A DNA stretch of 64,000 nucleotides from Phycisphaerales bacterium (GTDB lineage: Bacteria > Planctomycetota > Phycisphaerae > Sedimentisphaerales > Anaerobacaceae), in assembly GCA_030602885.1 (NCBI GenBank), contig JAUVYV010000002.1, positions 62,001-126,000 of the forward strand, given 5' to 3'. The notes under the pieces are model-generated. The model saw nothing but the letters and a program-made list of their open reading frames with translations. It was not told where the DNA came from and ran no database searches. This document shows, piece by piece, positions 161-30,694 of the stretch (its first letter is position 1; every line of letters starts with the position of its first letter). Both the position numbers and the translations under genes were made by a program.

Positions 161-1566
161 TCAAGCATAACTTCCTGCTGATATTCCGGCACCGTGACCT
201 GCCAGTTGCCGTTCTCTTCCAGAAAGCCGCCGAACGCCTTGGCGCTATCCGTCTCGCCGTGAACAACAAAGATACCCTTAGGGGGCTGCTCGAATTCCTT
301 TAGCCATTCCAACAGCTCATTTTTGTCGGCGTGGGCGCTGAAGCCGCGAACCTGTACAATCCTCGCCCTGACAGGCCGCTTTTCTCCTAATATCCTCACC
401 TCTTTTATTCCATCTACAATGGACCTGCCCAACGTCCCCACCGCCTGGTATCCCACGAACATTATCGTATTCTCAGAATCGCTGATATTGTTGACCAAAT
501 GGTGTTTGACTCTGCCGCCCGTGCACATACCGGACCCGGCGATTACCATTATGGGAGTGCTGATGTTGTTAATGGCCTTGGACTCGTCCGTTGTGGAAGA
601 TATCCGCAATCCGGGAAAAGTGAAGGGATTGTTGTTATTGCTGAGCCGCTCGTTCATTTCTTCGTCGAACATCTCAGGGTGCTTCTTAAAGACTTCGGTG
701 ATACGAATCGCCATAGGACTGTCGAGGAACACCGGCAGCTGCGGTATGGCGTTCTCTTCGAGAAGCTCGCTGAGATAAAACAGAATCTCCTGTGAACGTT
801 CGAGCGCAAAGCTCGGAATGATGATATTGCCGCCCGCCTCGACCGTCGAGTTCACTACTTTGGCGATTGTCTTTTTCACGTCGGCCGTCTCATGGTGGAC
901 CCTGTCACCATACGTCGATTCGACAATAACATAATCAATATCATCCCTGGGTATATTGGGATCGCGCACAATAGGCCTGTCGGGCCTGCCCAAATCACCC
1001 GAAAACAATACTGCCCTGTCCTCACCGTCCTTGCTGACGTTAACACGTATCATCGATGAGCCGAGCACGTGACCCGCATCGCAGAACGTCGCCTCGATAC
1101 CGTCGGCAATCTTAACGGTCTGCTTATACTTCACCGGTGAAAAATGCGGAAAAGTCGCCTCGGCATCCTCGACCGTATAAAGCGGCTCATACGGATGAGG
1201 ACCTTTCCTGCCCTGCCTCTCATGCCGTTTGCGTTTGCGCTCGGCATCATATTGCTGTATCCTCGCCGAATCCAGCAGAATAATCTTCACAATTTCCGCC
1301 GTCGCACCCGTGCAGTATATCTTCCCTTTGAACCCCTCCCGAACAAGCTTGGGAAGCAGCCCGCAGTGGTCCAGATGGGCGTGCGTCAACAAAACCGCGT
1401 CTATCTGGTTTGGCGGCACCGGAAACGGGTCCCAGTTCCTGGAGACAAACTGCCGTTCCTGATAGAGACCGCAATCGACAAGCAGCTTCGTCCCGTTCGC
1501 CTCAAGCATATGACGCGAACCGGTGACGTTCTGTGCCGCCCCGAGAAACCGCAGCTTTATTTGCAT
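157..1566 (-). CDS. Beta-CASP metallo-beta-lactamase-fold RNA-processing nuclease
   Basis: A cytosolic two-zinc hydrolase of the CPSF73/YSH1-like branch, expected to cut RNA as an endo- and/or 5' exonuclease. Metallo-beta-lactamase motifs are clear in order: THAHLDHCG (motif 2), GHVLGSS (motif 3 His) and SGDLGR (motif 4 Asp). The beta-CASP cap follows with ESTYGDR (motif A Glu), PSFALERSQE, SGMCTGGR and a final FSAHAD (motif C His), so all catalytic ligands are present. I chose the ATG at 1566 because the protein from MQIKLRFLG begins directly on the first beta strand and a GGGGCAGGG stretch lies just upstream. The frame stays open to 1689, and an ATG at 1605 is an alternative. About 469 residues, normal for the family. 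The RNA substrate is unknown. Confidence 0.92.
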   Translation of the reverse strand: MQIKLRFLGAAQNVTGSRHMLEANGTKLLVDCGLYQERQFVSRNWDPFPVPPNQIDAVLLTHAHLDHCGLLPKLVREGFKGKIYCTGATAEIVKIILLDSARIQQYDAERKRKRHERQGRKGPHPYEPLYTVEDAEATFPHFSPVKYKQTVKIADGIEATFCDAGHVLGSSMIRVNVSKDGEDRAVLFSGDLGRPDRPIVRDPNIPRDDIDYVIVESTYGDRVHHETADVKKTIAKVVNSTVEAGGNIIIPSFALERSQEILFYLSELLEENAIPQLPVFLDSPMAIRITEVFKKHPEMFDEEMNERLSNNNNPFTFPGLRISSTTDESKAINNISTPIMVIAGSGMCTGGRVKHHLVNNISDSENTIMFVGYQAVGTLGRSIVDGIKEVRILGEKRPVRARIVQVRGFSAHADKNELLEWLKEFEQPPKGIFVVHGETDSAKAFGGFLEENGNWQVTVPEYQQEVMLD

Positions 1567-1749
1567 ACCCTGCCCCAGCGATTTGATTTTCTTCCAAAAT
1601 GACATTGCACCATCTATTGTAACCGAAACCGCTCCACAAAACAAGCCGCAATACCGGCAAAAAAGGTTGCCGCAAAAACAGAAATGCACTAAACTTTCGT
1701 TTTGTAATAGCGCCTTAGGACCTTAAATGCTCGCAGTTTAGGAGGCATT

Positions 1750-6088: not shown

Positions 6089-9000
6089 CTACGGCGCAGG
6101 CCAAAGCTCGTAATCCAGCCAACCCTCCGCCAGCAACGCAAAATCCTTAAAGTCCACGATCCTCTGTCCACGCGGTTCCTCTTCATAAATCTCCGCAGGC
6201 GAGACAATCGGATAATACCACGTCGGTGCACCATCGGTAGCTAAGTACTTAATCTCCGTTTCATTCAACGGCCGATTGTAAATCCGAATATCGTCCAGAT
6301 GACCCGTGAAATAGTGCTCATACTCCGGTACCCAGTAAGGCGTATGCCGTGCACCTATCAGAACGTTCGCCTCGTCCCAGTAATACTCCTCAGGCCAGCC
6401 CCACACAGCAGCTTCCAGACGCCCGTTTAGGTAAATCTCCACGTAATCCCAATCAGCATCGTAAAACGCCGCAACATGATACCACCTGCCCGCCTCAAGC
6501 GCGTTGTAGGTTATGTACCCATATAGGTGCGTCGCAAAGTGAACCGCCGATGATACGTGAAGCAACTGGAGCTTCCACGCATATTCGCCCTTCGTCACAA
6601 AGCACCCCCAGGGCTCATATTCCATCATCTTAACCCACGAACTCAAAGTAAACGAATTCGGCAGATCAGCCCACGTCTCCGGATATCCGCCACCACAGTC
6701 AACATAGTCATTCGAATCAACCTGTGGCAGGCTCAAAACATAACTGCCCCGCTTGGAGTCATACACTATATCAGCATTGCCTTGCGGCGTACCGTCCCCT
6801 AAACTGCCCGCTATCGAACTGTCGTTGTTGTCATACGTCTGATCGTCGAAATCCCATTGTGCCACCAGTCCGCTCGTACCCGGGTTTGATAAAGGCAATA
6901 CGAAATCACTCTTAAGCCACCCGTCTGCAAATTCCTCAACGTCCTGCAAATCCACAATACAGTCACCAACATTCGATTCGATACCCCCTGCAATATCACC
7001 CAACTGCCGATAACCTTCCAGACCCACACACCGCGGTATATACAACCGAATATCGTCATACAAAACCGTCCCCTCTCCGCCGACCGCTCCGCCTTCAGGA
7101 TTACCTCGCAAACCAAACCCGATATACAGCTTCACCACATGCTCAAGGTCAACTACGCAGGGCTCATCAAAATCTCGCAAATCTATATTCCACTGCGCCC
7201 AGCTTGTTGCCCACGCCGCATTCGCATCCGGATGCTCCACTATCGCAATATTCCCGTCCGCGTCCTCCAGTCCCACATACATCCGGTCGTACACCGCATC
7301 AGTCGCATTGTCCTCATCACCCTTGAACGATAGCGTCAGCGCCTTAACATCCAATGTCGTATCGCCCAAAGTAAAATCTATTCCACCAACCCACTCCCGG
7401 CTGATCTCCGAATAGTAATCATCGCCCGAACCTGTCCCGTTGTTGTCATATACATAATTCATCGAGCTGCCCGACATCGATATCCGCGAACCTGTCCCGT
7501 TGCTCGTCCCGTCCGTCCATTGCCCTAAAAGAGCACTGTCACCCGAGTACGAATCAAAATCCTCCACCACACGATAGTTCTCAACAGTGAAATTCCATAC
7601 CACTCCGGGCCATATACACGGATCGTTTACCTCATCTATACGCCAGTAGTAAGTCGTATCAAGATGCAATTCATTCACCTCATAGACCGGGTCCGTCACA
7701 GTATCCATATAAACACCCAAGCTGTTACTCCGGTTCGCATCCGTTACAGCCGACTCATCCGTCCCGAAGTAAACATCATGCCCGTCCACATCTGCCGCAG
7801 TAAGTCCTGCAACCCAGCTCAGCTCTATTGCCGCCGACGCCCCCGACTCAAACGCTACGCTCACCCCCGAAGCCGGGCTCGGCCCGCTCGCTTCTGGACT
7901 CGCCGTCGTAAAGCTCCATATATCACCTCTCCAGATACAAGGGTCGCTCTCGTTTACCTCATCTATACGCCAGTAATAAATCGTCCCCAGCTCTATCCCG
8001 TCAAAAGGAACAAAACTGCTCGAATCCTGCCTCCCGTAATACGGGCTCACCGGCACATTCGAATGCAGGGGCCAGCCGCTGTGAGCATCCTCTATATAAT
8101 CCCTTCTCGTGCCGAAATAAACATCGTGCCCGTTCACGTCACCGGCAAAATCGCCCGCCGTCCAGCTAAGAACTACATTAGGATTCACCCCCATCACGCC
8201 GTTCGAAGGGTACGGGGCCTTCGCCTTCTCCGAGGGCGGCAGAAAATTCCACACATACCCACCACCGCGAACCGCCATCGCTAAGCTGTAAACCTTATCC
8301 TGACATGTTATATACAGCGTCTTGCCCTCAGCTCCACCAAATGTCACATTCGAGGCAAACTGCGGCACCGAAATAAACCGCAAAAGCTCGCCCTGCGGCG
8401 ACACTATCCATACACCGCCCCGACCGCAAAAATACAGGTTCCCACGCTCGTCAATCGTCATCCCGTCCGGGTCGTTCATATTAGGCGTACTCGGATTAAA
8501 AAACACCGCCCCTGCCCCGACGCTCCCGTCCGGATTAATCGGATAAACCTTCCACAGCTTATCAGTGCTGTCACCAACATAAAGCTTGCTCCCGTCGTCC
8601 GATGCTATTATCCCGTTCGGCTGAGTCATATCTGTAATAACCTCCGTCACCGTCCCGTCCGATGCAAGCCGATACACCACACAGTCCGCCGCAGGCCACG
8701 ATGGCCCCGTAAAGTAAATGTCCCCACGACGTGTCTGGCATAAATCGTTGGGCTGCTTCAATATCCCGTCGCTCGCGTCCGCCAGCGTCTTCGGCTCTTC
8801 CGCTCCGCTGGCGCCTATCTTATAACTCACTATCCCCTTCGGGTCCTCCTCCGCACACAAAAGCCGACCGTCCAATGAGATAAACATCCCGTTCACATTA
8901 TTCGTATCATCCATCCATACCGTCGCAGTCCCCGGCCCGTCGAGCCGTAAAACCTGCATCGGTGTCCCCCGCGCCGAGAAATACAGCTTCTCGCTCGCAC

Positions 9001-10783: not shown

Positions 10784-11047
10784 TACCGCACCTCCATCAA
10801 TTCCGGCTCTCTGCCCCAGCCAACCCTAACCTGTCTCCTCCACGCCCGGCAGAAATAGCACAGTTACAAAAGAAACCTCCCGAATCCGACCGCCAGGACG
10901 TTTCCCGCCTCGACAGTATTATACCCGAACCACCCCAATTTGTCAAATCCCCCCACAGTATGTCATTGCCAGGCCGTAGAATGTGGTAATTCCGAAGCGA
11001 AGCGGAGGTCCCGAGCGGAGGCGAGGGATCGGGGCGATTCTGGACGG

Positions 11048-11128
11048 CTGGATAATCGACCAAGAAAATCGCTTGGCTTTTTGACACCCAATGAAGTATT
11101 TTATGAACGGAAGAAATTAACAGGATAA
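11048..11128 (+). pseudogene. IS30-family transposase, C-terminal remnant
   Basis: The frame ending at TAA 11126-11128 reads LDNRPRKSLGFLTP followed by NEVFYERKKLTG. This is the hallmark C-terminus of IS30-family transposases (NxRPRKxLGxxTPxEVF). The match begins abruptly at 11048, directly after repeat sequence, and nothing upstream in any frame resembles the integrase core, so only about 26 codons survive. It marks an old insertion in this gap. Confidence 0.72.
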
Positions 11129-11231
11129 CAAAACAGGATTTGACTCAGTTGCACTTGGGAGTTGAATCCGCCTATCTAAACAGGTCGCTTGCTTTGCAAG
11201 CGATTAGGGTAAGTGATCCTTGCGTTTGCAA

Positions 11232-11282
11232 CCGGGGCCGAAGACCCCGGCTAAATATCTGGATTCCCGCTTTCGCGGGAAT
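11232..11282. repeat. Two adjacent hairpins, second of the ATTCCCGC-TTTC-GCGGGAAT type
   Basis: CCGGGG/CCCCGG (11232-11250) and ATTCCCGC/GCGGGAAT (11263-11282) form compact hairpins 30 bp downstream of asnA on its strand. They could help end the asnA transcript, but no T-run follows. The second matches the widespread 'ATTCCCGCGAAAGCGGGAAT' type of dispersed palindrome, so a repeat is the safer call. Confidence 0.6.
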
Positions 11283-11313
11283 GACATAATCAAGTGCGGA
11301 ATGACATGTCGCG

Positions 11314-12444
11314 TCATTCTATTACGTGGATATTTTTCTTTTTGCACATGTCCTTTAGTATCTTCGGCCAGACGGTGGCGGAGACCTCGCCGATGTGTGC
11401 TTTTTTCAAAAGGAGCATGAAGGTTCGTGACTGGCCTATTCCACCGCCGATGCTCAGTGGGATATCGTTGTTGATAATGGCCTTGTGATAGGGGAAGTTG
11501 AGGAAATCGAGCTGGCCGGTCATTTCGAGCTGGACCTTGAGCGTGTCGGCATTGACGCGGATGCCCATAGAAGTGAGCTCGTGGCGACGTTTGGTGACGT
11601 GGTTCCAGACGAGGATGTCGCCGTTCAGGCCGTGGGTGTCTCGACCGGTTTCGGCGGATGTGTCGGTGACCCAGTCGTCGTAGTCTGCGGCACGCAGCTC
11701 GTGGGGGTAGCCGTCCTTTAGCGTCCAGCCGATGCCGATGATGAACAAAGCGCGGTATTCCTTCGCGATTTCTGTTTCGCGCTGCTTTCGCGGCAGGTCG
11801 GGATAGCGATCGAGGATTTCCTCGGCGTGCAGGAATGTAAGCTCGTCGGGCATGTCGGGGTACTTGTCGGTTTTGAGCTGCGGGAACATTGCCTGGACAT
11901 GGTTTTCAGCGCCTTTGAGGACCTTCCAGAGCTTGCCGACGATTTCTTTCAGGAGTTTGAGGTTTCGCTGCTCTTCTGTTATGGCCAATTCCCAGTCCCA
12001 CTGGTCAACGTAGGCGGAGTGGTCGTGGTCGAGGAAGTAGTCTTTTCGGATGGCCCGCATGTCGGTCAGCAGGCCCTGGCCGATTCCCATGCCGAACTGC
12101 TTCAGTGCCATTCGTTTCCACTTTGTGGCGGCCTGGACGACCTGGGCGTCGATGGGGTTCTTGTCGTTGTCGTTCGAGATGTGAAACTGAATCGGCGTGC
12201 GTGAGCCGTCACGGTCGAGCAGGTCGTTGACGCCGCTTTCGACATCGACGATGAGCGGGACGGTGACACGAATCAGATTCAACTCTTTGCAGAGGTTCTG
12301 CTCGATGTAGTCCTTTGCGGCGTAGGTGGCGAGCTGAGTATCCCTGGCTGAGAGCAGTGAGGTGTAGTCTGCGGGGAGGATTTTTTCGAGTTCGGCGTAG
12401 TCACCGATTCCGGGCCCGGCGAGGTCGGCTTCTTTGTCAGCCAT
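11314..12444 (-). CDS. asnA: Aspartate--ammonia ligase (asparagine synthetase A)
   Basis: Makes L-asparagine from aspartate, ammonia and ATP in the cytosol; the fold is related to class II aminoacyl-tRNA synthetases. 376 residues, longer than the roughly 330 of the Escherichia coli enzyme; the surplus is split between an N-terminal leader and internal loops. Landmarks: LCKELNLIRVTVPLIVDVES, GVNDLLDRDGSRTPIQFHIS, the active-site stretch HSAYVDQWDWE, and the C-terminal motif-3-like SIGGGIGQSRTFMLLL. Start ATG 12442-12444 follows TTAGGAGAAAACGCA, a good ribosome site. It stands alone between two non-coding stretches. No tRNA-dependent amidotransferase genes are visible in the window. Confidence 0.95.
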   Translation of the reverse strand: MADKEADLAGPGIGDYAELEKILPADYTSLLSARDTQLATYAAKDYIEQNLCKELNLIRVTVPLIVDVESGVNDLLDRDGSRTPIQFHISNDNDKNPIDAQVVQAATKWKRMALKQFGMGIGQGLLTDMRAIRKDYFLDHDHSAYVDQWDWELAITEEQRNLKLLKEIVGKLWKVLKGAENHVQAMFPQLKTDKYPDMPDELTFLHAEEILDRYPDLPRKQRETEIAKEYRALFIIGIGWTLKDGYPHELRAADYDDWVTDTSAETGRDTHGLNGDILVWNHVTKRRHELTSMGIRVNADTLKVQLEMTGQLDFLNFPYHKAIINNDIPLSIGGGIGQSRTFMLLLKKAHIGEVSATVWPKILKDMCKKKNIHVIE

Positions 12445-14114
12445 TGCGTTTTCTCCTAAACAAGTGATTTATGCGGGCGACTGGGAGCCGCAGCGGCGAT
12501 GCTCAACTCACGATTGCCGCAGGAGGCGGGATCATGCCGGCTTCGCAGCGTATCTTAGTGGCACAACAGTCCGTATTCAGTCATTTGTCTTGTTGGCGTC
12601 AAATGTTAGGTCACCTGGCCAGCATGTCAAGGACAATCTGCCGAGACGGCAAGGGGTTACAAGCTGAGGAAGGTAATTAGGGTTCGGGGGCCAGATCCCC
12701 ACCGAAGGCGGGTAAAGGTTGGGGGGGTAGTATAAGTATAGCTTATAGTGTTTTGGAAAAGGGGTTAGAGGGGGGGGTGGAGGAATGGGCGGAAAGGGCG
12801 AATTCGGGGTCGAGAGGGGCCAACGGGACGGGTTTTCGCGTGCGGCGAAACGTGCGAAAGTGTGAAAAAAATTGAAAAAATCTGTGAAAAATGGCAGTGA
12901 AAAGGCAAAAAAACGCAAGAAAAAGGGGGTTTTGAGAGAATTCTTCGGAAGATTTGGGGGCCTTACTATTAGAAAAACTAATAGTATAAAGTCGTCTCTC
13001 GTCGCTCGTATCTCGTCGTTCGTATTTCGTTGGTTGAGGCGTGCTATGCACGCGGTGTTTTTATGACCCCGGCCTCGTAGGGCCGAGGTTAATTTAGGCG
13101 GGTCAAGATGGAATCGAGTGGTCATTTTTAGGCTTCCGAGTTTTTTCATTCACTATTTAGTTTCTGTATCTGCGCTTCATCGGGGGCTAAAGCGCCCCCC
13201 CATAATTAGGTTCGAGTTGCGCGTTTGGTGCGAAAATTCGCCCTTTTCGGCGCAGCCGATTTGCGTAAGTGCTTATGCAAACAAGAGTAAAAAAAGTTTT
13301 GGAATTTGGATTTTAGCGTGCAGGTACATGCGCGTTTGCGCTAAACGATCGTTTGAATTTCGCCTTTTCGGGGGCCAGTTCCTTCGACTTCGGCCCTTGG
13401 GGCCTTCGCTCAGGACCTCCGCTTTGCCCGCCGAATGGACGGCGGGCAAGCTCCGGCTTGCGCATTTGCGCCAAACGAACGGCGGGTAAATTTCAGTAGA
13501 TGGCAATGAGACCTAGCGCCAGGGGGAGGGAGAAATATCGGGCAGGTGAAGAGTGAGGTGAAGAGTTTTTAATCGCGGATTTTCACCACTAAGACGCGAA
13601 GTAACAAAAAAAGGTTCAAACCACGGATTGACACGGATTATCACGGATTAAGGATAGATTATAGCCACAGAGATCACAGAGACCACAGAGAGGTTTTTTC
13701 TTGGACGCAGATTAACACAGATTAACCCAGATTTTTTGCTAAGTGAAGTCTGAGCCAAGAGTTCGCTAAGAGGGATGGGCCGAGGGGGCTTGAAACCGCT
13801 AAATACTAACGAGTAAAAAAGGGTTGCAATCTCGGGCTATTTAGATATTATTTGGGCACGGATTTGGTTCGTATTGCGTATAGCGTATTGCTTGTTTGGC
13901 GGGGGGATCCGGCTTCGCCAGGGGCTACGCCGCGACAAGGGTCGATATACTCAATGAAGGCTCTCTTAGACGAGCGAAAAAGTCAAGATAGAGAAGGAAA
14001 ATTGACTGTCCCTAGTTTGACAGTTTGACGTGAAATGCGGCCGCTCAACTTGACTTTCGGCCTCGGTGGATTTGTTTTGAGAAAAGGAAAACACGATTTG
14101 ATGGGATCAAGTTA
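12445..14114. other. 1.7-kb repeat-rich non-coding region at the left edge of the accessory island
   Basis: I see no believable gene. Low-complexity tracts (poly-G near 12721-12780, A/T tracts near 12860-12980) generate proline- and phenylalanine-rich open frames on the minus strand that look spurious. Palindromic GGCGGGTAAA-type repeats lie at 12697-12718, 13426-13450 and 13470-13490. A CTTCGACTTCGGCCCTTGGG block lies at 13382. Short 'CACGGATT/CACAGAGA/CACAGATT' repeats fill 13588-13738. The composition becomes AT-rich towards 14100, where the next genes begin. Confidence 0.65.
13588..13738. repeat. Clustered short direct repeats (CACGGATT, ACCACAGAGA, ACACAGATTA)
   Basis: Three small families sit side by side: CACGGATT-type units at 13623-13650, CACAGAGA-type units at 13662-13692, and CAGATTAA-type units at 13707-13732. 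A related text (CACTGATTAACACTGATACGCAGATAG) occurs before dsbD at 22343. Such simple repeats are often scattered between genes in this phylum. No function is evident. Confidence 0.55.
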
Positions 14115-14609
14115 ATGAATTCAAAAGAACAATCAATAACCATAACAGTTTTAAGATGGTTGGCAGTCGTGCCCGGTGCGATACTTTTTCCAATTCTAAT
14201 TGATTTTCCAATCCACTGGCTTGTGCAACTAAAATTTTACTTTCTACCGCCGGATGAACCACATTTATTTGGATTTGTGTATTTTGATAATCCTGCTGAG
14301 TTTGAATATTTAATGTACGCGTTCTTTAATCCTTTGGCGATGATTTTAGCGGTAGCTTATATTACTCCCCATAAAAAGCTTATTGCCTCTGTGATTGCTT
14401 CAGTGCTATGTGTCGGTTTTATTGCAATTTCTTACTACTCCGTAATTGCAAGCGATGTCGGTATTGGTTTTAAGGACATTTTTGTAAAGTCAATCCTAAA
14501 CATAGCAGGTCTCACGTTGGCTTTAATATATGCTTACAGAAAAAACATAACACAAGAAATTATTGATAGCTCAAGGAAGTTAAGAAGGAAACAAGCAACA
14601 AGTACCTAA
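14115..14609 (+). CDS. Small multi-pass membrane protein of unknown function
   Basis: 164 residues with four hydrophobic segments (about 12-32, 60-80, 90-112 and 122-143) and a polar, lysine/arginine-rich C-terminus (SSRKLRRKQATST). No family is recognised. Base composition is clearly richer in A/T than the core genes on both sides, which suggests acquisition. It is followed by two more unknown genes in the same direction; no function can be assigned. Confidence 0.65.
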   Translation: MNSKEQSITITVLRWLAVVPGAILFPILIDFPIHWLVQLKFYFLPPDEPHLFGFVYFDNPAEFEYLMYAFFNPLAMILAVAYITPHKKLIASVIASVLCVGFIAISYYSVIASDVGIGFKDIFVKSILNIAGLTLALIYAYRKNITQEIIDSSRKLRRKQATST

Positions 14610-14641
14610 TCCTCTGGTTAGTGTAAATTCTGTTAAGCCCT

Positions 14642-14761
14642 GTGTATTTATTGCTTGCGGTTGGCGCTATATTGGTCACCATTAGCTTTATACTGCCTGT
14701 ATGTTGTTGTTTGATGATTTCTAAGATATTTAAGCGAAAGAAAGTAAATGAAATTCCTTAA
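14642..14761 (+). CDS. Possible 39-residue membrane micro-protein
   Basis: From GTG 14642 to TAA 14759-14761 the frame encodes VYLLLAVGAILVTISFILPV, then three cysteines and a basic tail (KIFKRKKVNEIP). This is a classic single-span profile with positive-inside charge. It overlaps the first 14 bases of the next gene. There is no ATG and no good ribosome site, and an in-frame stop lies a few codons upstream, so it may be chance or the end of a degraded gene. Confidence 0.28.
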   Translation: MYLLLAVGAILVTISFILPVCCCLMISKIFKRKKVNEIP

Positions 14762-15155
14762 AAAGATATTTGCTTCAAAGGAAGTCAATACTGCATTGGG
14801 AGTTCTTGATGAATTAGACTATATATGCGACAGTCCTGCCTTCCAATTGGCAAGAAAAGTCGTCGAGTCAACTATTTTAGCACGGCAGGAGAAGTTTGCT
14901 ATTGCCCTTAAAAAACAAGGTAGAACTCCACGTCAGAAAGTGTATTCAATGCTGGAGAGTGTTGTAGGAGACGACTTGGAAAGCGGGTATCACGATTTTT
15001 TCGTTTATAGAGGAGTGCTTACTCCAACTGGTGAGGAACTTCTTAAAGTATATGACCGCATCATAGATCAGATGAGAGAAATTGATTATATAAGCGAAGA
15101 AGAGGCGCAGAGGCAAAAAAGCAACATCAGAGACCGTATCAAAGAGGCAGGATAA
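14748..15155 (+). CDS. Small helical protein of unknown function
   Basis: 135 residues, predicted mostly helical and highly charged (many Lys/Arg and Glu), with no signal or membrane segment. The C-terminal half (EISEEEAQ-like acidic/basic helices) could be coiled coil. No family is recognised. It lies in the AT-rich island between a membrane protein and the Abi-alpha gene, on the same strand. Gene status rests on composition and ATG placement only. Confidence 0.6.
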   Translation: MKFLKKIFASKEVNTALGVLDELDYICDSPAFQLARKVVESTILARQEKFAIALKKQGRTPRQKVYSMLESVVGDDLESGYHDFFVYRGVLTPTGEELLKVYDRIIDQMREIDYISEEEAQRQKSNIRDRIKEAG

Positions 15156-15282
15156 TGTAATGTTTGATGGAAAAGGAATATTTGTTTGGTTGGGTAGCAT
15201 GTGCAATTGGACGAGTCCGCCGTCCCGCCAAACAAGCGGCGGGTAAAAGGCGGATAAATATTGAAGAAGCAACGGGAACTTC

Positions 15283-15299
15283 TTATACAGACTGTATAA
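15283..15299. promoter_or_regulatory. Perfect 17-nt palindrome, candidate operator of the Abi-alpha gene
   Basis: TTATACAG-A-CTGTATAA, 29 bp before the ATG at 15328. Its right arm overlaps a consensus -10 box (TATAAT at 15295-15300). A dimeric repressor binding here would cover the promoter, which is a common way to keep a toxic defence gene silent. No regulator gene is adjacent, and a convincing -35 box is not seen. Confidence 0.45.
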
Positions 15300-15327
15300 T
15301 CATTGTTATACCTACGAAAGGAGTCCA

Positions 15328-16029
15328 ATGAGTGAAACTGAAGAAATAGCAAAAGCGATACAGGAATCTGCAAAGCTAGGAGAGAAAGGTTTAGAAATTG
15401 CCGATAAAGCAGGCAGGTTTTTTGCTAAAGTCTTCAAAGAGCCCGTTAACGAAATTTCGGGAATTATTACCGACAAATTGCGCTTCATTAGATGGAGGCG
15501 CATGGTTCAAATGGCAGATGAGGTCAATAAGATTTTAGACGAAAAGAAAGTTGAAGATACAAGAGCGGTTCAGCCTAAAATTGCATTGCCGATTCTTGAA
15601 GAGTCATCGTTAGAAGATGACCCAAATCTTCAATATCTTTGGAATCATTTATTGGCAAATGCAATGAACCCAAACTTTAATGATGAAATCAGGTATGGCT
15701 TCACTGAAATGATTAAGAATATTACAGGCATTGAAGCCCTAATTCTAAGCGAGTTCTACAAAATATTGGAAAAAGAAAATCGGCTCACACCCCTTTCTGA
15801 AATTCACAATTATAGCTTAAAGAAAGAGCAACTAATCGATGGACTAAAAATGTCTCCAGATCAATATGCTGTATCTGCAAATAATTTGATGAGAATGCAG
15901 TTATTAGGCCCTGCTGTATTGAAAGGTGGGGTTAAAATGGGTTCAGAACCGTTGACAATTTTTAAGGGTATTGACGCTGTAACATTAACACCTCTTGGTG
16001 TAAAATTTATTGAAGCCTGCATGAAATAA
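15328..16029 (+). CDS. Abi-alpha family (DUF4393) protein, candidate phage-defence gene
   Basis: 233 residues, no signal or membrane segment. The DUF4393/Abi-alpha signature is visible: KPKIALPILEESSLED-like text around residues 84-100 (PKIALPILEESSLEDDPNL) followed by LQYLWNHLLANAMNPNF. The family is named after an abortive-infection gene; its mechanism is not established. An amphipathic N-terminal stretch (IAKAIQESAKLGEKGLEIA) is typical. Ribosome site GAAAGGAGTCCA precedes ATG 15328. A palindrome overlaps the promoter, and an integron-type attC-like site starts one base after the stop codon, the normal place for a cassette recombination site. AT-rich composition supports transfer. Confidence 0.78.
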   Translation: MSETEEIAKAIQESAKLGEKGLEIADKAGRFFAKVFKEPVNEISGIITDKLRFIRWRRMVQMADEVNKILDEKKVEDTRAVQPKIALPILEESSLEDDPNLQYLWNHLLANAMNPNFNDEIRYGFTEMIKNITGIEALILSEFYKILEKENRLTPLSEIHNYSLKKEQLIDGLKMSPDQYAVSANNLMRMQLLGPAVLKGGVKMGSEPLTIFKGIDAVTLTPLGVKFIEACMK

Positions 16030-16030
16030 G

Positions 16031-16139
16031 GGCTAACAAGGCGCTGCACCTGACCGCTGTTCAGCGATAAATAAAGCGGGCGAAGGCGAGCCGAGTAACA
16101 CTGAAATGGTTGTGCTGTGAAAAAAGCGGCTTGTTATGC
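16031..16139 (+). repeat. attC-like (59-base element) recombination site
   Basis: The left core GGCTAAC (16031-16037) and right core GTTATGC (16133-16139) fit the RYYYAAC/GTTRRRY pattern with one or two departures. The arms TAACAAGGCGCT (16034-16045) and AGCGGCTTGTTA (16125-16136) pair at 11 of 12 positions with a single central mismatch, as in folded attC sites. Total length is 109 bp, within the usual 57-141. It begins directly after the stop codon of the Abi-alpha gene. No integrase gene and no second attC are visible, so this would be a lone cassette. Confidence 0.6.
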
Positions 16140-16153
16140 GGAAAGGAGCAGAA

Positions 16154-16852
16154 ATGACTGAGCAGATATCGCCAAAAGTCTGCAAGATGAAGACCAAGAA
16201 ACACATTGTGCTTCTTATCATAGGCATCATTGCGACAATCACCGCCCAATGTTTCAAAATGCATAATCCCAGCGCATACACGCTCGGTGGCCTCCTTGCT
16301 TTCATTCTGATTCAGCCGGTTTCATATTTTGTGATTCTTAGCATCATCGGCCTAATTGTTGCCGCAATTCGCAGAAACATCAGAAAATTCTGGTTTCCTA
16401 TCTTGGCTTGGCTGTTCCTTGTAGCTGGTCTCTTTGACATCGTTGTCGGTGGATTTACTGAATTTGTTCTACGGCCGAAAGCTAATCAAGCTATTGAGGA
16501 ATTAGTTCGAAGTGGTAAAATCGAAGAACTTACTAAATTTGATCCCAGAGAACGTATATTAGGACATTGGTCATCTGAAGATGATTTGACCCATCAATAT
16601 TTTGGCCCAAACAATCATTTGATAATTGTAAATCTTGGCCAGCAGAAAGCTGTAAAATACTCTATTGAAAATTTCAGTGTGATTGAGAGGTGGATAAAAT
16701 TTAATGTTTCAGGTGCAGATTATGATCCTCATACAAGAACAATGTATTTTCTTAGTGACGGGACCGCATGGCAAACCATAGAGTCCTCTTTTGGTAAGTT
16801 CAAGTCGAAATTAAAGCATGTGGGACCAGAGCAGTCTCCGGGTGGGAATTAG
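16154..16852 (+). CDS. Membrane-anchored protein of unknown function
   Basis: About 232 residues from ATG 16154, chosen because GGAAAGGAGCAG precedes it; an upstream in-frame ATG at 16136 lies inside the attC-like site. Three hydrophobic segments (about 20-38, 43-70 and 82-105) are followed by a soluble C-terminal domain. In that domain, FDPRERILGHWSSEDD resembles small lipocalin-like or 'META-type' beta domains that begin with a GxW motif, but no family can be named. It lies just after the attC-like site, in the position of a following cassette, yet no attC follows it. Confidence 0.62.
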   Translation: MTEQISPKVCKMKTKKHIVLLIIGIIATITAQCFKMHNPSAYTLGGLLAFILIQPVSYFVILSIIGLIVAAIRRNIRKFWFPILAWLFLVAGLFDIVVGGFTEFVLRPKANQAIEELVRSGKIEELTKFDPRERILGHWSSEDDLTHQYFGPNNHLIIVNLGQQKAVKYSIENFSVIERWIKFNVSGADYDPHTRTMYFLSDGTAWQTIESSFGKFKSKLKHVGPEQSPGGN

Positions 16853-17363
16853 AGTTGTCCGGCCTTTCAACTGGTAAATGATTATTGATTATTGTGGGGC
16901 GGCCCCGGTGAGATAGGCAAAGGCGGCCATCTCACGGGGTAAACGTGGGGAAATAGTCGCCTGCGGGGCAGGCGAGGAGGGGAATGACAAAGTCGTTGTG
17001 AAGGTGTCAGCGTCTTCGGATGTGCCCTCGGCCAAAGGCCGAGGCTATATAGGTCGCCTGCGGGGCAGGCGAAGAGGGGAATGACAAAGTCGTTGTGAAG
17101 GTGTCAGCATCTTCGGATGTGCCCTCGGCCAAAGGCCGAGGCTATATAGGTCGCCTGCGTCCGGATTCGGCGGGATGTGGAAGCAAGCAGAGCTTGCGGT
17201 TTTTTTGCCTTGTTTCTTGGTTTGCATAGTATCGAAGAGGGGGTATAATGCGGGGGATTCCCCATCACAGGGGTGGGGGTTAAATATGGGTTGCAGGTTG
17301 TAAGTTGGGTCCCCTGTTGCGGGATCAAGGAAGCAGGCACTCGGGGATTCGGCGAAGATAGGA
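16853..17363. other. Intergenic region with hairpins and a 97-bp tandem repeat
   Basis: No gene is seen. A hairpin formed by CCGGTGAGAT and ATCTCACGG lies near 16904-16937. The 97-bp tandem repeat follows (16956-17159), then a stretch leading into the TPR gene. This looks like the right border of the AT-rich island, where GC content rises again. Confidence 0.65.
16956..17159. repeat. 97-bp tandem repeat, two copies plus a 10-nt third start
   Basis: Units start at 16956, 17053 and 17150 with GTCGCCTGCG, an exact period of 97 bp, and the two full copies differ at only a few positions. Each unit contains two hairpins (GCCTGCGGGGCAGGC and CCTCGGCCAAAGGCCGAGG) and the text GGGAATGACAAAGTCGTTGT. 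Near-identical text (GGGAATGACAGAGTCGTTAT) recurs at 34580, so this is a local amplification of a dispersed repeat. Confidence 0.8.
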
Positions 17364-18371
17364 ATGGGAAAGAGAAAAGGCAAAATGCGGTATGTGGCGA
17401 TAGTGTTGGTGGGTTTGGTGTTGGCTGCCTCGGCAGCCATCGGGGCGGAGGTGTATCGGTTAGGTGAAGGGGGCGAGTTAGAGCAGGTTGGGCAGAGCGA
17501 GGAGGAGCAGTATCTATTGCGTGTGGCGGAGGTGAAGCGATTTGTGAATGAGGGGAATGCGAAGGCGGCTAAAGAGGCGGCGGAGCAGTTGAAGGAAGAG
17601 CGGCCTGGGGCAGCGGGGGAGGATTTTGATGCGTATATTGAGGCGGAGCTGCTGCTCTGCAAGGGTAAGCTGACGAAGGCGGCGAGGCGGTATGATAAGC
17701 TGTTGGATGATGAGCCGGAGAGCGGGCTGAGAGATGCGGCGATGGAGAGGTTGTTCGAGATAGGGACGGATTATTTGGGCGGGCGCAAGAAGCGGGTGCT
17801 GAAGATATTCAAGGTCCGCGGGTATGCGGAGGGTGTGAGGATAATGGAGAAGATAAGCGACCGGGCGGGGACGGGGGAGATATCGCAGAGGGCGGCGGTG
17901 GCGGTGGTGAGGCATTATGAGAGGCGGGGCAAATGGGAGGATGCGTATTTGAAGTGGTCTGAAATTTCGACACTGTGGCCTTTGGGTGATTTGGGCAGGG
18001 AGTCGCTGCTGGGAATGGCGAGGGCGAAGTATGCGGCGTACAAGGGGTCTGAGTACGATACGTCGGGCATAGTTAGTGCGAAGAGCTATTACGAAAATTT
18101 CCGGCTGCGTTATTCCGATGAGGCGGGGGAAATCGGGGTTGACAGGATAATCGAAGAGATAGATGCCAAGCTTGCGGTGAAGGAGCTTGATACGGCGAGG
18201 TATTATGCGAGGACGGGCGGCAGGGAGGCGGCGAATATGTATTATCAGATGGTAATAGATAAATGGCCCGTCAGCGAGGCGGCGGCTGCGGCGCGAGAAG
18301 AGATGGCTAAGCCGGAGCCAAAGAAGAAGGAAGATACGTGGCTGAAGAAGTTAAAAAGATTAGTGTTGTAG
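17364..18371 (+). CDS. Secreted TPR-type protein, BamD-like
   Basis: 335 residues with an N-terminal signal peptide (VAIVLVGLVLAASAAIGA), so periplasmic or envelope-attached. There is no clear lipobox. Helical repeats fill the rest: residues about 45-110 and 120-300 contain TPR-like pairs (AKRYDKLLDDEPESGLRDAA, ANMYYQMVIDKWPVSEAA). The last repeats resemble the 'YYQ.I...P.S..A..A' pattern of BamD/YbgF proteins. The C-terminus is basic. It overlaps the LptE-like gene by 34 bases, so a role in outer-membrane assembly is plausible but inferred. An in-frame ATG at 17385 is an alternative start. Confidence 0.68.
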   Translation: MGKRKGKMRYVAIVLVGLVLAASAAIGAEVYRLGEGGELEQVGQSEEEQYLLRVAEVKRFVNEGNAKAAKEAAEQLKEERPGAAGEDFDAYIEAELLLCKGKLTKAARRYDKLLDDEPESGLRDAAMERLFEIGTDYLGGRKKRVLKIFKVRGYAEGVRIMEKISDRAGTGEISQRAAVAVVRHYERRGKWEDAYLKWSEISTLWPLGDLGRESLLGMARAKYAAYKGSEYDTSGIVSAKSYYENFRLRYSDEAGEIGVDRIIEEIDAKLAVKELDTARYYARTGGREAANMYYQMVIDKWPVSEAAAAAREEMAKPEPKKKEDTWLKKLKRLVL

Positions 18372-18865
18372 TTTTCGCTGCAGCGGCGATTTGCTTAGCG
18401 GTGTGCGGGTGCGGCGGCATCGGCGGGTACATGAATGAGTCGCTGTATCCGGCGGGGATTCGGAGCGTCTATATCGAGATGTTCGATAATCAGAGTTTTC
18501 GGCGTGGGATAGAGTATGAGCTGACGGACGCGCTGGCGAAGCGGATTGAGGCGCAGACGCCTTACAAGATTGTATCGGACCGGAGCAGGGCGGATACGGT
18601 GATAAGCGGGCAGATAGTTCGTGCGGGTGAATCTGTTTTGAGCACGGAGCGTCAGACGGGTCGGGCACTGGAAAGGGAGGTTTTGCTTCGTGCGGTGGTG
18701 AGCTGGAAGAATCAGGAGACGGGTGAGCTGTTGATAAACGACGGGCAGGTGAGTGCATCTGCGAGCTATTCGGAGTGGCAGAATCAGGGATTTGCGTACG
18801 GGTCGGCACTTGCGGCAAACAATTTGGCGGAGAAAATCGTAGAGTTGATGGAGGTTGGGTGGTAA
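18338..18865 (+). CDS. lptE: LptE-like outer-membrane lipoprotein
   Basis: 175 residues. A lipoprotein signal ends in VCGCGG; a further Cys lies two residues on. The mature part shows the LptE fold pattern: GIRSVYIEMFDNQSFRRGIE, then a helix with LTDALAKRIEAQTPYKIV and SRADTVISGQIV. LptE plugs the LptD barrel that delivers lipopolysaccharide to the outer leaflet, so this implies an outer membrane with LPS-like lipid. The start lies inside the preceding TPR gene, so they are coupled. LptD itself is not in the window. Confidence 0.75.
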   Translation: MAEEVKKISVVVFAAAAICLAVCGCGGIGGYMNESLYPAGIRSVYIEMFDNQSFRRGIEYELTDALAKRIEAQTPYKIVSDRSRADTVISGQIVRAGESVLSTERQTGRALEREVLLRAVVSWKNQETGELLINDGQVSASASYSEWQNQGFAYGSALAANNLAEKIVELMEVGW

Positions 18866-19207
18866 GTAACTCAAACTGACCGATGGTCAGTTTGAGAGTG
18901 TAAAAATCAAAATGCAAAATGCAAAATTGTTGAATCCGCCTGTGGCGGACGGCTGGTTTTATTATATTTTTTGTAACGCAGGACATATTAGCGAATAAAA
19001 AGTTAGGTTAATTTTTGTCTGCAAAGCGGTCAGTTTGAGTAAGTAAGAGCGTAAGTGTTGCAGGGTGCAGAGTGTCCGTCAAACGGCCGGCAGAGCTTCG
19101 CCCGCCAAACAGAGTGGCGGATAAACTGCGCTACGATGGGTTGTAAGGGCGGGAGTCCGCGGGCCCGCCAAAGGCGGGTAAACTGAGGTTGGTAAGTAAG
19201 AGGTGCT
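18866..19207. other. Repeat-filled gap between the lptE-like gene and ftsH
   Basis: No gene is seen. It holds the TCAAACTGACCG palindrome (18870-18896), a half copy of it at 19025-19036, and three GGCGG/CCGCC dyads (18934-18953, 19100-19126, 19164-19183). The text GAGGTTGGGTGGTAAGTAA at the left edge (18850) recurs as GAGGTTGGTAAGTAA at 19186, as if the block between them had been inserted. Confidence 0.6.
18870..18896. repeat. Palindrome CTCAAACTGACC-GAT-GGTCAGTTTGAG
   Basis: A 12-bp perfect stem with a three-base loop, five bases after the lptE stop codon. It could stop transcription, but no U-run follows. An almost identical palindrome sits at the end of dsbD (24151-24175), so it is a repeated element. 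Confidence 0.75.
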
Positions 19208-21262
19208 ATGAGTAACGGTCGGGAAAAAAGGAATGTTGGCAGGCGTCCGGGTCCTGCGGGCAGAGGCGGGAAGAGGCCGCCGCCGGTTTACGGTGGTGGT
19301 TTTTTCAAGTTAGTGCTGGTCGGGTTCGGGGTTTTTGCGTTGATGCTGCTGATTCAGCAGTGGCAGCGGACGGATACTATCAGGTATGACGAGTTTGTGG
19401 CGTATTTGAATGAGGGCAAGATTGAGGAGGTGCTGGTCGGTGAGACGGATATTCGAGGGCAGTTTAACGAGGAGGGTCTGGCGAACCGCGGGGAGGGTGC
19501 GGTGAAGTCGTTTGTGGTGGATTACAAACCGGAGGTGGTTCGCGAGCGGCTTATTGAGCGTTTAGAGCAGAGCGGTGTGAAGTGGAAATTCACGAGACAG
19601 CGCATATGGCTGTGGAACCTGATAAGCTTGTTTTTGCCGCTGCTTTTGATTGGGGTTTTTATCTATATAATATTCATTCGGAATATGCGAAGCGGGGCTG
19701 GGGGGATGCTGATGAGTTTCGGTCGGAGCAAGCACAAGCTTCACAGCAAGGACCGGGAGAAGGTGACATTCGAGGACGTGGCCGGTGTTGAGGAGGCGAA
19801 GGAAGAGGTAGCAGAGATAATCGAGTTTTTGAAGAACCCGAAGAAGTTTCAGCGTTTAGGGGGTCGGATACCGCGAGGTGTTCTTTTGATAGGGCCTCCG
19901 GGGTGCGGGAAGACTCTTTTGGCGAAGGCGATAGCGGGTCAGGCGGACGTTCCATTTTTCAGCATATCGGGCAGTGACTTCGTTGAGATGTTCGTGGGTG
20001 TTGGAGCGTCTCGTGTGCGTGATTTGTTCAAGCAGGCGAAGGACAATTCGCCGTGTATTATTTTTCTCGATGAGGTTGACGCGGTTGGTCGGCGTCGGAG
20101 CGCGAGCTTTGCCGGCGGGGGACACGATGAGCGTGAGCAGACGCTGAATGCGATTTTAGTTGAGATGGACGGTTTTGAGACGAACGACCAGGTGATAGTG
20201 ATAGCGGCGACGAACCGTTCTGATATTCTGGACCATGCGTTGACTCGGCCCGGGCGGTTCGACAGGCAGGTGATAGTTCCGCTGCCTGATTTGCGGGGCA
20301 GGGCGGAGATATTGAAGGTTCACGCGAAGAAAGTGAAGCTCGGGCCTGATGCAAACCTGGAGCGGCTTGCGCGTGGTACGCCGATGTTCAGCGGGGCGGA
20401 TTTGGCGGCGATTATCAATGAGGCGGCGCTGGCGGCGACGATGGCGAACAAGGATTACGTTGAATTAGCGGACCTTGAGGAGGCGAGGGACAAGGTGCGG
20501 TGGGGACGGGCGAAGAAGAGCAGGGTAATCGATAAGAAGGAGCAGGAGATAACGGCTTATCACGAGGCGGGTCATACGTTAGTTCAGTCGCTTTTGAAGG
20601 AAGCGGACCCGCTTCACAAGGTGAGTATCATACCGAGGGGGCCGATGGGAGGGGCGACGTTTGCGCTGCCGGAGAAGGACCGGACAATGTTTACGAAGCG
20701 ATATTGTATGGCGTTGATGCAGGTGTGCTTTGCTGGGCGTATAGCGGAGGAGATGTTCTGCGACGATATATCGAGCGGGGCACAGTCGGACATACAGCAG
20801 GCGACGAACATAGCGAAGCAAATGGTTCTGACGTGGGGGATGAGCGAGCAATTAGGGCTAATCAGTTACGAACCGGATAATGTCAAGGACGCATTTTATA
20901 TGATACCGGGTGAGAAAGAGTATTCGGAGAAGACGGCGGAGACGATAGACAGCGAGGTGAAGAGGATTACGGACGAGGCGTACGGCAAGGCGAAGGTGCT
21001 GATAGAGGCGAATAAGGACAAGCTCGAGGGGATAGCAAAGGCCCTTCTGAAATACGAGACATTGGATGCGGACGACGTGAAGGCGATTCTGGATGGGGGT
21101 ATGCTGGACAAGCCGACGGTGACGGATTTATTAGCCGCCGAGCAGGCGAAAGATAAGCAGGCGAAGGGTAAGCAGGCGAAAAATAAGCAGGCGAAGAGTG
21201 AGCAGGACGAAAGCGATAAGGCGGAAGATGAGCCGGAGCACAGGCAGAAAGAACAGAAGTAG
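19208..21262 (+). CDS. ftsH: ATP-dependent zinc metalloprotease FtsH
   Basis: Membrane-anchored hexameric AAA+ protease that degrades misfolded membrane proteins and short-lived regulators. 684 residues: first membrane helix about 33-51, an extracytoplasmic domain, second helix about 137-157, then the AAA domain with Walker A GPPGCGKT, Walker B IIFLDEVDAVGR and second region of homology TRPGRFDRQ. The protease domain has HEAGH (zinc) and a downstream acidic ligand (EEMFCDDISSGAQSDI). The C-terminal tail (about 640-684) is unusual: it is built of QAKxK pentads (KDKQAKGKQAKNKQAK) followed by an acidic run. Ribosome site AAGAGGTGCT precedes ATG 19208. SppA follows 41 bp downstream, forming a membrane quality-control pair. 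Confidence 0.97.
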   Translation: MSNGREKRNVGRRPGPAGRGGKRPPPVYGGGFFKLVLVGFGVFALMLLIQQWQRTDTIRYDEFVAYLNEGKIEEVLVGETDIRGQFNEEGLANRGEGAVKSFVVDYKPEVVRERLIERLEQSGVKWKFTRQRIWLWNLISLFLPLLLIGVFIYIIFIRNMRSGAGGMLMSFGRSKHKLHSKDREKVTFEDVAGVEEAKEEVAEIIEFLKNPKKFQRLGGRIPRGVLLIGPPGCGKTLLAKAIAGQADVPFFSISGSDFVEMFVGVGASRVRDLFKQAKDNSPCIIFLDEVDAVGRRRSASFAGGGHDEREQTLNAILVEMDGFETNDQVIVIAATNRSDILDHALTRPGRFDRQVIVPLPDLRGRAEILKVHAKKVKLGPDANLERLARGTPMFSGADLAAIINEAALAATMANKDYVELADLEEARDKVRWGRAKKSRVIDKKEQEITAYHEAGHTLVQSLLKEADPLHKVSIIPRGPMGGATFALPEKDRTMFTKRYCMALMQVCFAGRIAEEMFCDDISSGAQSDIQQATNIAKQMVLTWGMSEQLGLISYEPDNVKDAFYMIPGEKEYSEKTAETIDSEVKRITDEAYGKAKVLIEANKDKLEGIAKALLKYETLDADDVKAILDGGMLDKPTVTDLLAAEQAKDKQAKGKQAKNKQAKSEQDESDKAEDEPEHRQKEQK

Positions 21263-30007: not shown

Positions 30008-30694
30008 ATGGATATGACGAGTCATTCCGTTGAGGATTTGTGGCGTATATTTCGGATAATGGCAGAGTTTGTCGAGGGTTATCAGGAGCTTTCGACGGTG
30101 GGGCCTGCGGTTTCGTTTTTTGGGTCAGCTCGGACGAAGCGAAGTGACAAATATTATAAGCTTGCGCAGGAAACGGCCCGTGATGTAGTGAAGGCGGGCT
30201 TTGCGGTAATCACGGGTGGCGGCGGCGGGATAATGGAGGCGGCGAACAAGGGTGCGGCAGCGGCGGGCGGCAAGAGTATCGGTTTGAATATTGACCTTCC
30301 GCTGGAGCAGGTTCCGAACGACTATCAGAATGAATCGCTGAGTTTTCGGTACTTTTTCATTCGGAAGGTGATGTTTTTAAAGTACGCACACGGGTTTGTT
30401 GTTTTCCCGGGCGGGTACGGGACGATGGACGAGTTTTTCGAGTCGCTGGTTTTGATACAGACACTGAAGCAGGCATCGTTTCCGGTGATATTGATGTGCA
30501 GTGGGTACTGGGAGGGGCTGATTGGGTGGATGAAGGAGAAGATGCTGAAAGAGCACGGGAATATATCGGCGAAGGACCTTGATGTTTTTTCGGTGGTGGA
30601 TGAGCCGGAAGAGGCGGTGAAGATACTCGTTAAGTTCAGGGAGAGCGAGGGCCAGGCGGGTCTGCAGTTGCCGGGGGGAATGAGAAAAGAGTAG
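30008..30694 (+). CDS. LOG-family nucleotide-binding protein (TIGR00730)
   Basis: 228 residues from ATG 30008; AAGGAG at 29992 also allows a TTG start at 30002. The Rossmann-like lysine-decarboxylase-fold family has two signature motifs, both present: GGGGGIMEAANKGA and PGGYGTMDEFFE (Arg/Glu catalytic pair). Members typically hydrolyse nucleoside 5'-monophosphates to base and ribose phosphate, the best-known ones activating cytokinins; the natural bacterial substrate is often unclear. It follows nth by 39 bp in the same direction. Confidence 0.88.
   Translation: MDMTSHSVEDLWRIFRIMAEFVEGYQELSTVGPAVSFFGSARTKRSDKYYKLAQETARDVVKAGFAVITGGGGGIMEAANKGAAAAGGKSIGLNIDLPLEQVPNDYQNESLSFRYFFIRKVMFLKYAHGFVVFPGGYGTMDEFFESLVLIQTLKQASFPVILMCSGYWEGLIGWMKEKMLKEHGNISAKDLDVFSVVDEPEEAVKILVKFRESEGQAGLQLPGGMRKE

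What the first reader, a model, noticed from the sequence alone, without database searches (positions are those of the whole stretch)
14115..16852. AT-rich island of four small unknown genes around an Abi-alpha gene
Five same-direction frames with lower GC than their surroundings, bounded by repeat arrays (12.4-14.1 kb and 16.9-17.2 kb). Membrane protein, helical protein, Abi-alpha and membrane/beta protein could form an uncharacterised defence cluster.
Basis: inference. Interest (0 to 1): 0.5.

Follow-up and report, generated by a model that had tools for sequence, protein, structure and literature searches.

The report
Stranded integron cassette carrying Abi-alpha gene
The AT-rich patch is real, but it does not look like a four-gene defence cluster: its one recognisable gene, a candidate phage-defence gene, looks like a mobile integron cassette left behind in a genome in which no integron enzyme was found.

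Summary
The AT-rich island (14115-16852) is real: GC 39% against 53%, about the lowest of the window. It holds four plausible same-strand genes; only ORF3 is recognisable (Pfam Abi_alpha, 81.8 bits; PADLOC candidate PDC-S47). The flanking repeats are dispersed genome-wide, not element ends.

ORF3 is best read as a former integron gene cassette. Its closest relative found (79% aa identity, Desulfobacteraceae MAG) is the first cassette of an integron with an IntI gene (440.7 bits, cut-off 265) and two attC sites. Homology with the window begins at a GTT box before ORF3 and stops just inside an attC-like start after its stop codon. The first half of that attC is canonical; the second is not, and my attC model gives the whole site only 9.2 bits, not significant. 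No IntI and no intact attC were found in the genome, with searches that scored part of their candidates.

ORF4 begins at the second boundary and may be a second cassette. ORF1, ORF2 and ORF4 are near-orphans that accompany no other Abi-alpha gene seen. Defence activity is inferred, not shown.

The parts
14115..14609 (+). ORF1, 164 aa, hydrophobic, probably membrane protein; near-orphan; a GTT lies almost directly before its start (14111-14113), of doubtful meaning
   Evidence: membrane reading is from the sequence by eye
14748..15155 (+). ORF2, 135 aa, charged, probably helical; orphan
   Evidence: helical reading by eye
15164..15304 (.). spacer without a recognisable attC; contains a 28-bp piece (15233-15260) of dispersed repeat material
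15305..15311 (+). left cassette boundary: GTT box 23 nt before the ORF3 start, matching the junction before cassette 1 of L034 (4978)
   Evidence: 16 of 23 leader bases identical, 4-9 of 20 in each of the five 20-bp blocks upstream
15328..16029 (+). ORF3, Abi_alpha (PF14337), 233 aa; 79% identical to the first cassette gene of L034
16031..16054 (+). canonical attC first half (R'' box, spacer, L'' box, extrahelical A)
   Evidence: 26.7 bits with a 24-column weight matrix, next best in the window 9.7; 1 of 200 simulated windows as high
16031..16139 (+). degenerate attC-like site between ORF3 and ORF4; second half not canonical
   Evidence: R1 model 9.2 bits, E 0.37, best of the 3.2 kb searched with filters off but not significant; not found by the default scan
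16133..16139 (+). R' box-like GTT heptamer; right boundary of the ORF3 cassette and left boundary of the ORF4 segment
   Evidence: second-half score 3.6 bits, preceded by T where the aligned attC sites have C in 90% or more
16136..16852 (+). ORF4, 238 aa as listed (likely start 16154), helical/hydrophobic N-terminal half and beta-rich C-terminal half in a low-confidence model; orphan; possible second cassette without an attC at its 3' end
12707..13961 (.). left flank: mosaic of dispersed non-coding repeats
16877..17164 (.). right flank: dispersed non-coding repeats including the 97-bp tandem pair
17364..18865 (+). conserved host genes (TPR protein, LptE; FtsH follows at 19208) that mark the native right side
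   Evidence: TPR gene in 40 of 41 genomes, own included; TPR and LptE in 15 of 15 relatives' stretches

Best explanation
ORF3 (Abi-alpha) entered this chromosome as an integron gene cassette. The cassette runs from the GTT at 15305 to the GTT at 16133; its attC lies between ORF3 and ORF4 and lacks a canonical second half. ORF4 starts at the second junction with a cassette-like leader and is probably the next cassette, now without an attC of its own. No IntI and no intact attC were found in this genome, so the cassette looks stranded: a remnant of a small attC array or an off-target insertion. Steps shown: family membership, cassette status of the closest relative, matching boundaries, canonical half attC, no IntI over cut-off among the candidates scored. 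Steps inferred: how it was inserted, that the attC decayed in place, and that ORF4 is a cassette. ORF3 most likely acts alone, as an abortive-infection gene that curbs phage multiplication by mistimed lysis, as its tested family member ef2833 does; this is inferred from family membership only. ORF1 and ORF2 are separate AT-rich acquisitions of unknown origin.
For: Closest relative found, L034 (79% aa identity), is the first cassette beside an IntI gene (TIGR02249 440.7 bits, cut-off 265) with attC sites of 41.3 and 52.9 bits. Window/L034 homology: 16 of 23 bases in the leader from the GTT, 4-9 of 20 in each block upstream; 9 of 9 bases at the attC start, then 6 of 20 and 3 of 20. The attC first half scores 26.7 bits, above 6 of 8 attC sites not used for training; 1 of 200 simulated windows reaches it anywhere, and here it begins with one base between it and the ORF3 stop codon. 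A second Abi_alpha gene of the same phylum sample (G181, L163) starts 5 bases behind an attC (30.3 bits) in an attC array. R1 attC matches occur in 11 of 24 same-family genomes and IntI over cut-off in 57 of 337 phylum genomes (own best E 3.5e-24, far below). ORF1-4 are absent beside the conserved TPR-LptE genes in 15 of 15 relatives' stretches (one has only 0.6 kb upstream).
Against: The attC model R1 does not recognise the site: 9.2 bits, E 0.37 in 3.2 kb. Hits that I take for spurious reach more: 13.6 bits at 30258-30304 in the window and 10.1 bits inside the L035 gene. The default scan of the window misses the site, as does the own-genome search (150 of 1326 candidates scored). The IntI search scored 6 of 42 own-genome candidates, so its absence is not proven. 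The second attC half scores 3.6 bits, above 2 of 8 held-out sites. Single-strand DNA folds are not better than shuffles (z -0.27 and -1.26). Beyond the first 9 bases the attC bodies of window and L034 are unrelated. No attC was found before ORF3 or after ORF4. Only 2 of 26 Abi_alpha loci scanned have an R1 match in the flank held, and L035 (51% identity) has none outside the gene that I would credit.
Confidence: 0.75

Rival explanations
1. All four genes are successive cassettes of a decayed attC array, ORF1 and ORF2 included.
For: Same strand, similar low GC and orphan status typical of cassettes; GTT just before the ORF1 start, and an R'-half-like stretch of 6.4 bits at 14625-14638 between ORF1 and ORF2, better than the 3.6 bits of the accepted site; R1 attC matches in 11 of 24 same-family genomes.
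Against: No credible attC site between ORF1, ORF2 and ORF3 with filters off; a piece of dispersed repeat lies between ORF2 and ORF3; lone GTT boxes are weak evidence.
Confidence: 0.12
2. One reading: a four-gene operon that works as one defence system.
For: Same direction, short gaps, one candidate defence gene.
Against: No co-occurrence in any locus held; ORF1, ORF2 and ORF4 match no PADLOC model; repeat piece and cassette boundaries between the genes; Abi-alpha acts as a single gene in the tested case (passages of PMC6356687).
Confidence: 0.05
3. ORF3 and ORF4 came on a prophage or plasmid remnant, and the attC-like half site is a chance or borrowed sequence.
For: Abi-alpha relatives occur in Vibrio inoviruses (3 of 50,697 phage records), one plasmid (1 of 72,556) and 5 viral-collection contigs; none of the 7 such loci scanned has an R1 attC match.
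Against: No phage, plasmid or integrase gene was recognised among the four ORFs; the relatives in phages and plasmids are far more distant (23-38% identity) than the integron one (79%); both homology ends coincide with cassette boundaries.
Confidence: 0.08

Closest known systems
Integron gene cassette / CALIN (cluster of attC sites lacking integron-integrase; passages of PMC9024848 and PMC8618304)
   Same: Single small gene with a short leader after GTT, attC start right after the stop codon, closest relative found is cassette 1 of an integron with IntI
   Different: One degenerate attC only, so below the two-site CALIN threshold of IntegronFinder 2.0; attC second half not canonical; no IntI found
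Abi-alpha, E. faecalis ef2833 (PF14337, formerly DUF4393; passages of PMC6356687)
   Same: Pfam family Abi_alpha, 81.8 bits; single gene
   Different: Cassette-like setting rather than prophage; host has an LptE gene, so probably an outer membrane, unlike Enterococcus; lysis phenotype untested; N-terminal 60 residues lie outside the Pfam match
Phage-defence cassettes of Vibrio sedentary chromosomal integrons (Darracq et al. 2025, known here only as described in passages of PMC12409362)
   Same: Small defence-type gene stored as a cassette
   Different: Those are large arrays with IntI and tested activity; here an isolated remnant with no test
PADLOC candidate PDC-S47
   Same: ORF3 matches the three models of that name listed (2.9e-12 to 2.3e-11)
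   Different: Candidate status only; partial match (within residues 47-193)

Membership tests
Integron gene cassette | attC recombination site at the 3' end of the gene (R'' and R' boxes, paired L arms) | tested here: inconclusive
   First half canonical, 26.7 bits; whole site only 9.2 bits, not significant
Integron gene cassette | Ends defined by GTT recombination points, homology to another copy stopping there | tested here: met
   against one copy (L034)
Integron gene cassette | Homologous gene found as a cassette in a real integron | tested here: met
   L034 with IntI and two attC sites
Integron gene cassette | Site can be recombined by IntI | not testable with these tools
   needs an excision assay
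Complete integron | intI gene beside attI | tested here: not met
   Own best TIGR02249 match E 3.5e-24, far below the cut-off (6 of 42 candidates scored; draft of 128 contigs)
CALIN | At least two attC sites without intI (IntegronFinder 2.0 default, passage of PMC9024848) | tested here: not met
   One degenerate site in the window, none in the own genome by R1 (150 of 1326 candidates scored)
Abi_alpha (PF14337) | Score over Pfam gathering cut-off (29 bits) | tested here: met
   81.8 bits
Abi_alpha (PF14337) | Abortive-infection phenotype with premature lysis | not testable with these tools
   seen for ef2833 (PMC6356687 passages)
Multi-gene defence system | Genes recur together in unrelated genomes | tested here: not met

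The most novel reading that the evidence does not exclude
Abi-alpha defence genes travel between distant bacterial lineages as integron cassettes, and this one has been domesticated: it lost a working attC and became fixed beside the conserved TPR-LptE-FtsH genes of a genome without an integron, together with a second cassette gene (ORF4) of an undescribed family that may itself be a defence gene.
Probability: 0.25. Interest if true: 0.5.

Novelty: new member of a known kind. Interest (0 to 1): 0.35.

Why it matters
It replaces a defence-cluster reading by a concrete origin: a single candidate defence gene carried as an integron cassette, with relatives in an integron, an attC array, inoviruses and a plasmid. 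It adds a likely case outside Vibrio to the idea that integrons stock phage-defence genes. It also shows how an orphan gene next to a known defence gene may be a neighbour by cassette order rather than by function. As to print: the 6 held papers that contain any of four names of the family are by their titles not about integrons, and I opened passages of one of them (PMC6356687) only; the integron searches listed 15 papers each of 338, 221, 28 and 45. Most subscription papers are not held.

Tried and rejected
Four-gene defence operon: rejected, no co-occurrence. Flanking repeats as element ends: rejected, they are dispersed through the genome. Further attC half sites in the own genome: the only exact pattern hit is the window's own, and all hits with up to 2 mismatches (20) are fewer than those of the reversed control pattern (37). 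Rfam: nothing over gathering score in 11000-19500. The 121-bp attC-like stretch against plasmids: six short chance-level hits. A 22-base piece of the attC-like start, exact, in viral contigs: none. Relatives of ORF1, ORF2, ORF4 in viral contigs: none by tblastn; in plasmids: none for ORF1 and ORF4, one marginal for ORF2 (E 0.05); the phage collection was searched for ORF3 only. Close ORF3 relatives in viral contigs by single sequence: none; five distant ones by alignment. Solved structures: ORF3 gives five weak hits to protein A repeats (best E 0.00023, no stretch passing on its own); ORF4 none. AlphaFold models: ORF4 mean pLDDT 54.2 and ORF3 52.6, too poor for a fold search, which I did not run. 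Promoter/terminator scan of 13900-17400: 7 promoter-like sites against 6.9 in shuffles, 5 terminator-like against 2.9.
Full report
What is there. Between 14115 and 16852 lie four same-strand ORFs (164, 135, 233, 238 aa). The stretch has GC 0.392 against 0.528 for the window; the lowest of 1226 stretches of that length (0.390) starts at about 14050. GC3 is 0.31-0.39 against 0.64-0.75 in four flanking host genes. ORF3 is Abi_alpha (PF14337, 81.8 bits against a cut-off of 29) and matches the PADLOC candidate PDC-S47. ORF1, ORF2 and ORF4 match nothing over a curated cut-off and nothing convincing in PADLOC or PHROGs.

Flanks. The repeats on both sides are not arrays that end an element. Window 12707-13961 is a mosaic of non-coding repeats (70 further matches for the 12450-15330 query), and 16877-17164 likewise (33 further matches for the 16850-17165 query). 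A 28-bp piece that recurs beside such a repeat elsewhere (15233-15260) lies between ORF2 and ORF3, which breaks the island in two. To the right follow TPR, LptE and FtsH genes, conserved in relatives (TPR gene in 40 of 41 genomes, own included). In 15 stretches fetched around the TPR gene of relatives (13 of the same family, 2 of the same order), TPR and LptE are in 15 of 15, FtsH in 13 of 15 (of the other two, one stretch ends right after LptE and one 0.7 kb after it), and ORF1-4 and asnA in 0 of 15 at E 1e-4. Fourteen of these stretches hold 6.6-10.6 kb upstream and one only 0.6 kb. The island is therefore specific to this lineage as far as sampled; no genome of the same genus was among the relatives offered.

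The key relative. A pattern scan of the collection of 84,980 species genomes for close ORF3 relatives gave two loci. L034, a Desulfobacteraceae MAG contig, encodes a 79% identical protein as the first cassette of an integron. A divergent gene scores 440.7 bits with the integron integrase model TIGR02249 (cut-off 265). The cassette begins at a GTT 23 nt before the start codon and ends in an attC directly after the stop; a second cassette with an OmpA-like gene and a second attC follows. R1 shows strong covariation (score 0.399, 0 of 500 shuffles as high), though the sites had been picked for pairing, which favours that. It finds the two L034 sites with 41.3 and 52.9 bits.

Boundaries in the window. 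Aligned to L034, the leader from the window GTT (15305) to the ORF3 start has 16 of 23 identical bases, while the five 20-bp blocks upstream have 7, 4, 9, 7 and 5 of 20. After the stop codon the nine bases of the attC start are identical, and then identity drops to 6 of 20 and 3 of 20 (full alignment). So homology spans the gene plus cassette leader plus attC start. The attC that follows in the window differs from that of L034. Its first 24 bases are canonical: 26.7 bits with a weight matrix from the 21 sites, the next best place in 64 kb scoring 9.7, and 1 of 200 simulated windows reaching it anywhere (0 of 20). It resembles attC sites of the phylum sample closely (for example L095:5292-5353 and L086:3281-3353).

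What speaks against an intact attC. The second half is not canonical: its best R' candidate (16126-16139) scores 3.6 bits, above only 2 of 8 held-out sites, and has T where 90% or more of the aligned attC sites have C before the GTT. R1 gives the whole 109-base site 9.2 bits, E 0.37 in a 3.2-kb search with filters off. It is the best hit there but not significant, and hits that I take for spurious score more: 13.6 bits elsewhere in the window and 10.1 bits inside the L035 gene. The default scan of the window does not report the site. Folding of either strand is no better than shuffles. The own genome has no R1 match at E 10 (150 of 1326 candidates scored) nor at E 0.01 (150 of 1296). In that last search 5 of 5 control genomes rang (3 of them not used for training), and 11 of 24 same-family genomes have matches. 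The own genome's best match to the IntI model (E 3.5e-24, 6 of 42 candidates scored) is far below the cut-off, which 57 of 337 phylum genomes pass. Hence I call it a stranded, degenerate cassette, not an integron and, by the two-site rule of IntegronFinder 2.0 (passage of PMC9024848), not a CALIN. A passage of PMC8618304 gives off-target insertion, loss of intI and rearrangement as origins of attC clusters without intI; I cannot choose between them.

ORF4. It begins at the second GTT, with a strong ribosome-binding site and a likely start at 16154, 21 nt after the GTT, like the 23 nt of ORF3 and of the L034 cassette (read from the sequence). That fits a second cassette. It has no attC at its 3' end and no relative found: own genome only among 343 phylum genomes, none in viral contigs or plasmids. 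Its AlphaFold model is poor (mean pLDDT 54.2). ORF1 and ORF2 have only lone GTT boxes near them, which is weak evidence of boundaries.

Other contexts of the family. PF14337 is in 16 of 343 phylum genomes, 15 over cut-off. Of 26 Abi_alpha loci scanned with R1, 2 have an attC match in the flank held: L034 and G181. These are 17 loci of the phylum sample (mostly 1.5 kb on each side), L034 and L035, five viral-collection loci and the inovirus and plasmid loci. Longer stretches of five of the 17 added only one more site in G181, and a search with filters off a third. In G181 the Abi_alpha gene starts 5 bases behind an attC (30.3 bits) and two more sites follow (35.0 and 27.7 bits); directly after the gene R1 finds none, though a long R''/R' pair can be seen by eye. 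L035 (51% identity) has no attC around the gene. More distant relatives sit in three Vibrio inovirus records (37.5%), one Pseudomonas plasmid beside methyltransferase, helicase and GIY-YIG nuclease genes, and five viral-collection contigs. In the 234 loci held, ORF2 and ORF4 have no match outside this genome at E up to 1, and ORF1 has three marginal ones (E 0.04, 0.35, 0.9), none in an Abi-alpha locus. The gene thus looks like a single mobile unit, mostly not in integrons.

Mechanism. In E. faecalis the family founder ef2833 alone causes abortive infection with lysis about 10 minutes early; its authors speculate about holin timing or membrane potential (passages of PMC6356687). I take single-gene abortive infection as the most likely function of ORF3 (about 0.5), by family membership only; the ORF3 model was too poor to add structural support (mean pLDDT 52.6). 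Expression here would depend on a local promoter, for which the scan gives no evidence.

Verdict. The likely origin is of a known kind, an integron cassette with a candidate defence gene. It is of moderate interest because I found no paper that links Abi-alpha with integrons; the 6 held papers that contain any of four names of the family were judged by title, except passages of PMC6356687.

Noticed in passing
window 12707-13961 and 16877-17164: Families of dispersed non-coding repeats with 103 further matches in the own genome (70 and 33), a number of them at contig ends, so they probably break the assembly.
   Followed up: partly
window about 10.8-11.0 kb: GC skew turns from about -0.3 to positive and stays positive in 4-kb steps to 64 kb; but the 4-kb profile is slightly positive left of 8 kb, so an origin of replication is only a possibility.
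   Followed up: no
L044/L163 (G181:C388): attC array in which another Abi_alpha gene stands right behind an attC; its last codons seem to run into the next R'' box (by eye).
   Followed up: partly
L105-L162: 58 viral-collection contigs encode relatives of the L034 integron integrase (23-64% identity in the best segment); of 20 scanned, 11 have attC matches at E 0.01.
   Followed up: partly
L173 (PQ189387.1) 6566-7285: Abi-alpha gene in a Vibrio inovirus, 37.5% identical to ORF3, one of 3 such records among 50,697 phage records.
   Followed up: partly
L034:5839-6720: The cassette after Abi-alpha in the Desulfobacteraceae integron is an OmpA-like protein that also matches ZorB (Zorya) models by its OmpA/MotB-like part (E 2.2e-13).
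   Followed up: no
window 157-1689: Beta-CASP nuclease whose best NCBIfam match by E-value is Cas14 of type VII CRISPR, but at about half the cut-off (422 of 800 bits), with aCPSF1 also below its cut-off.
   Followed up: no
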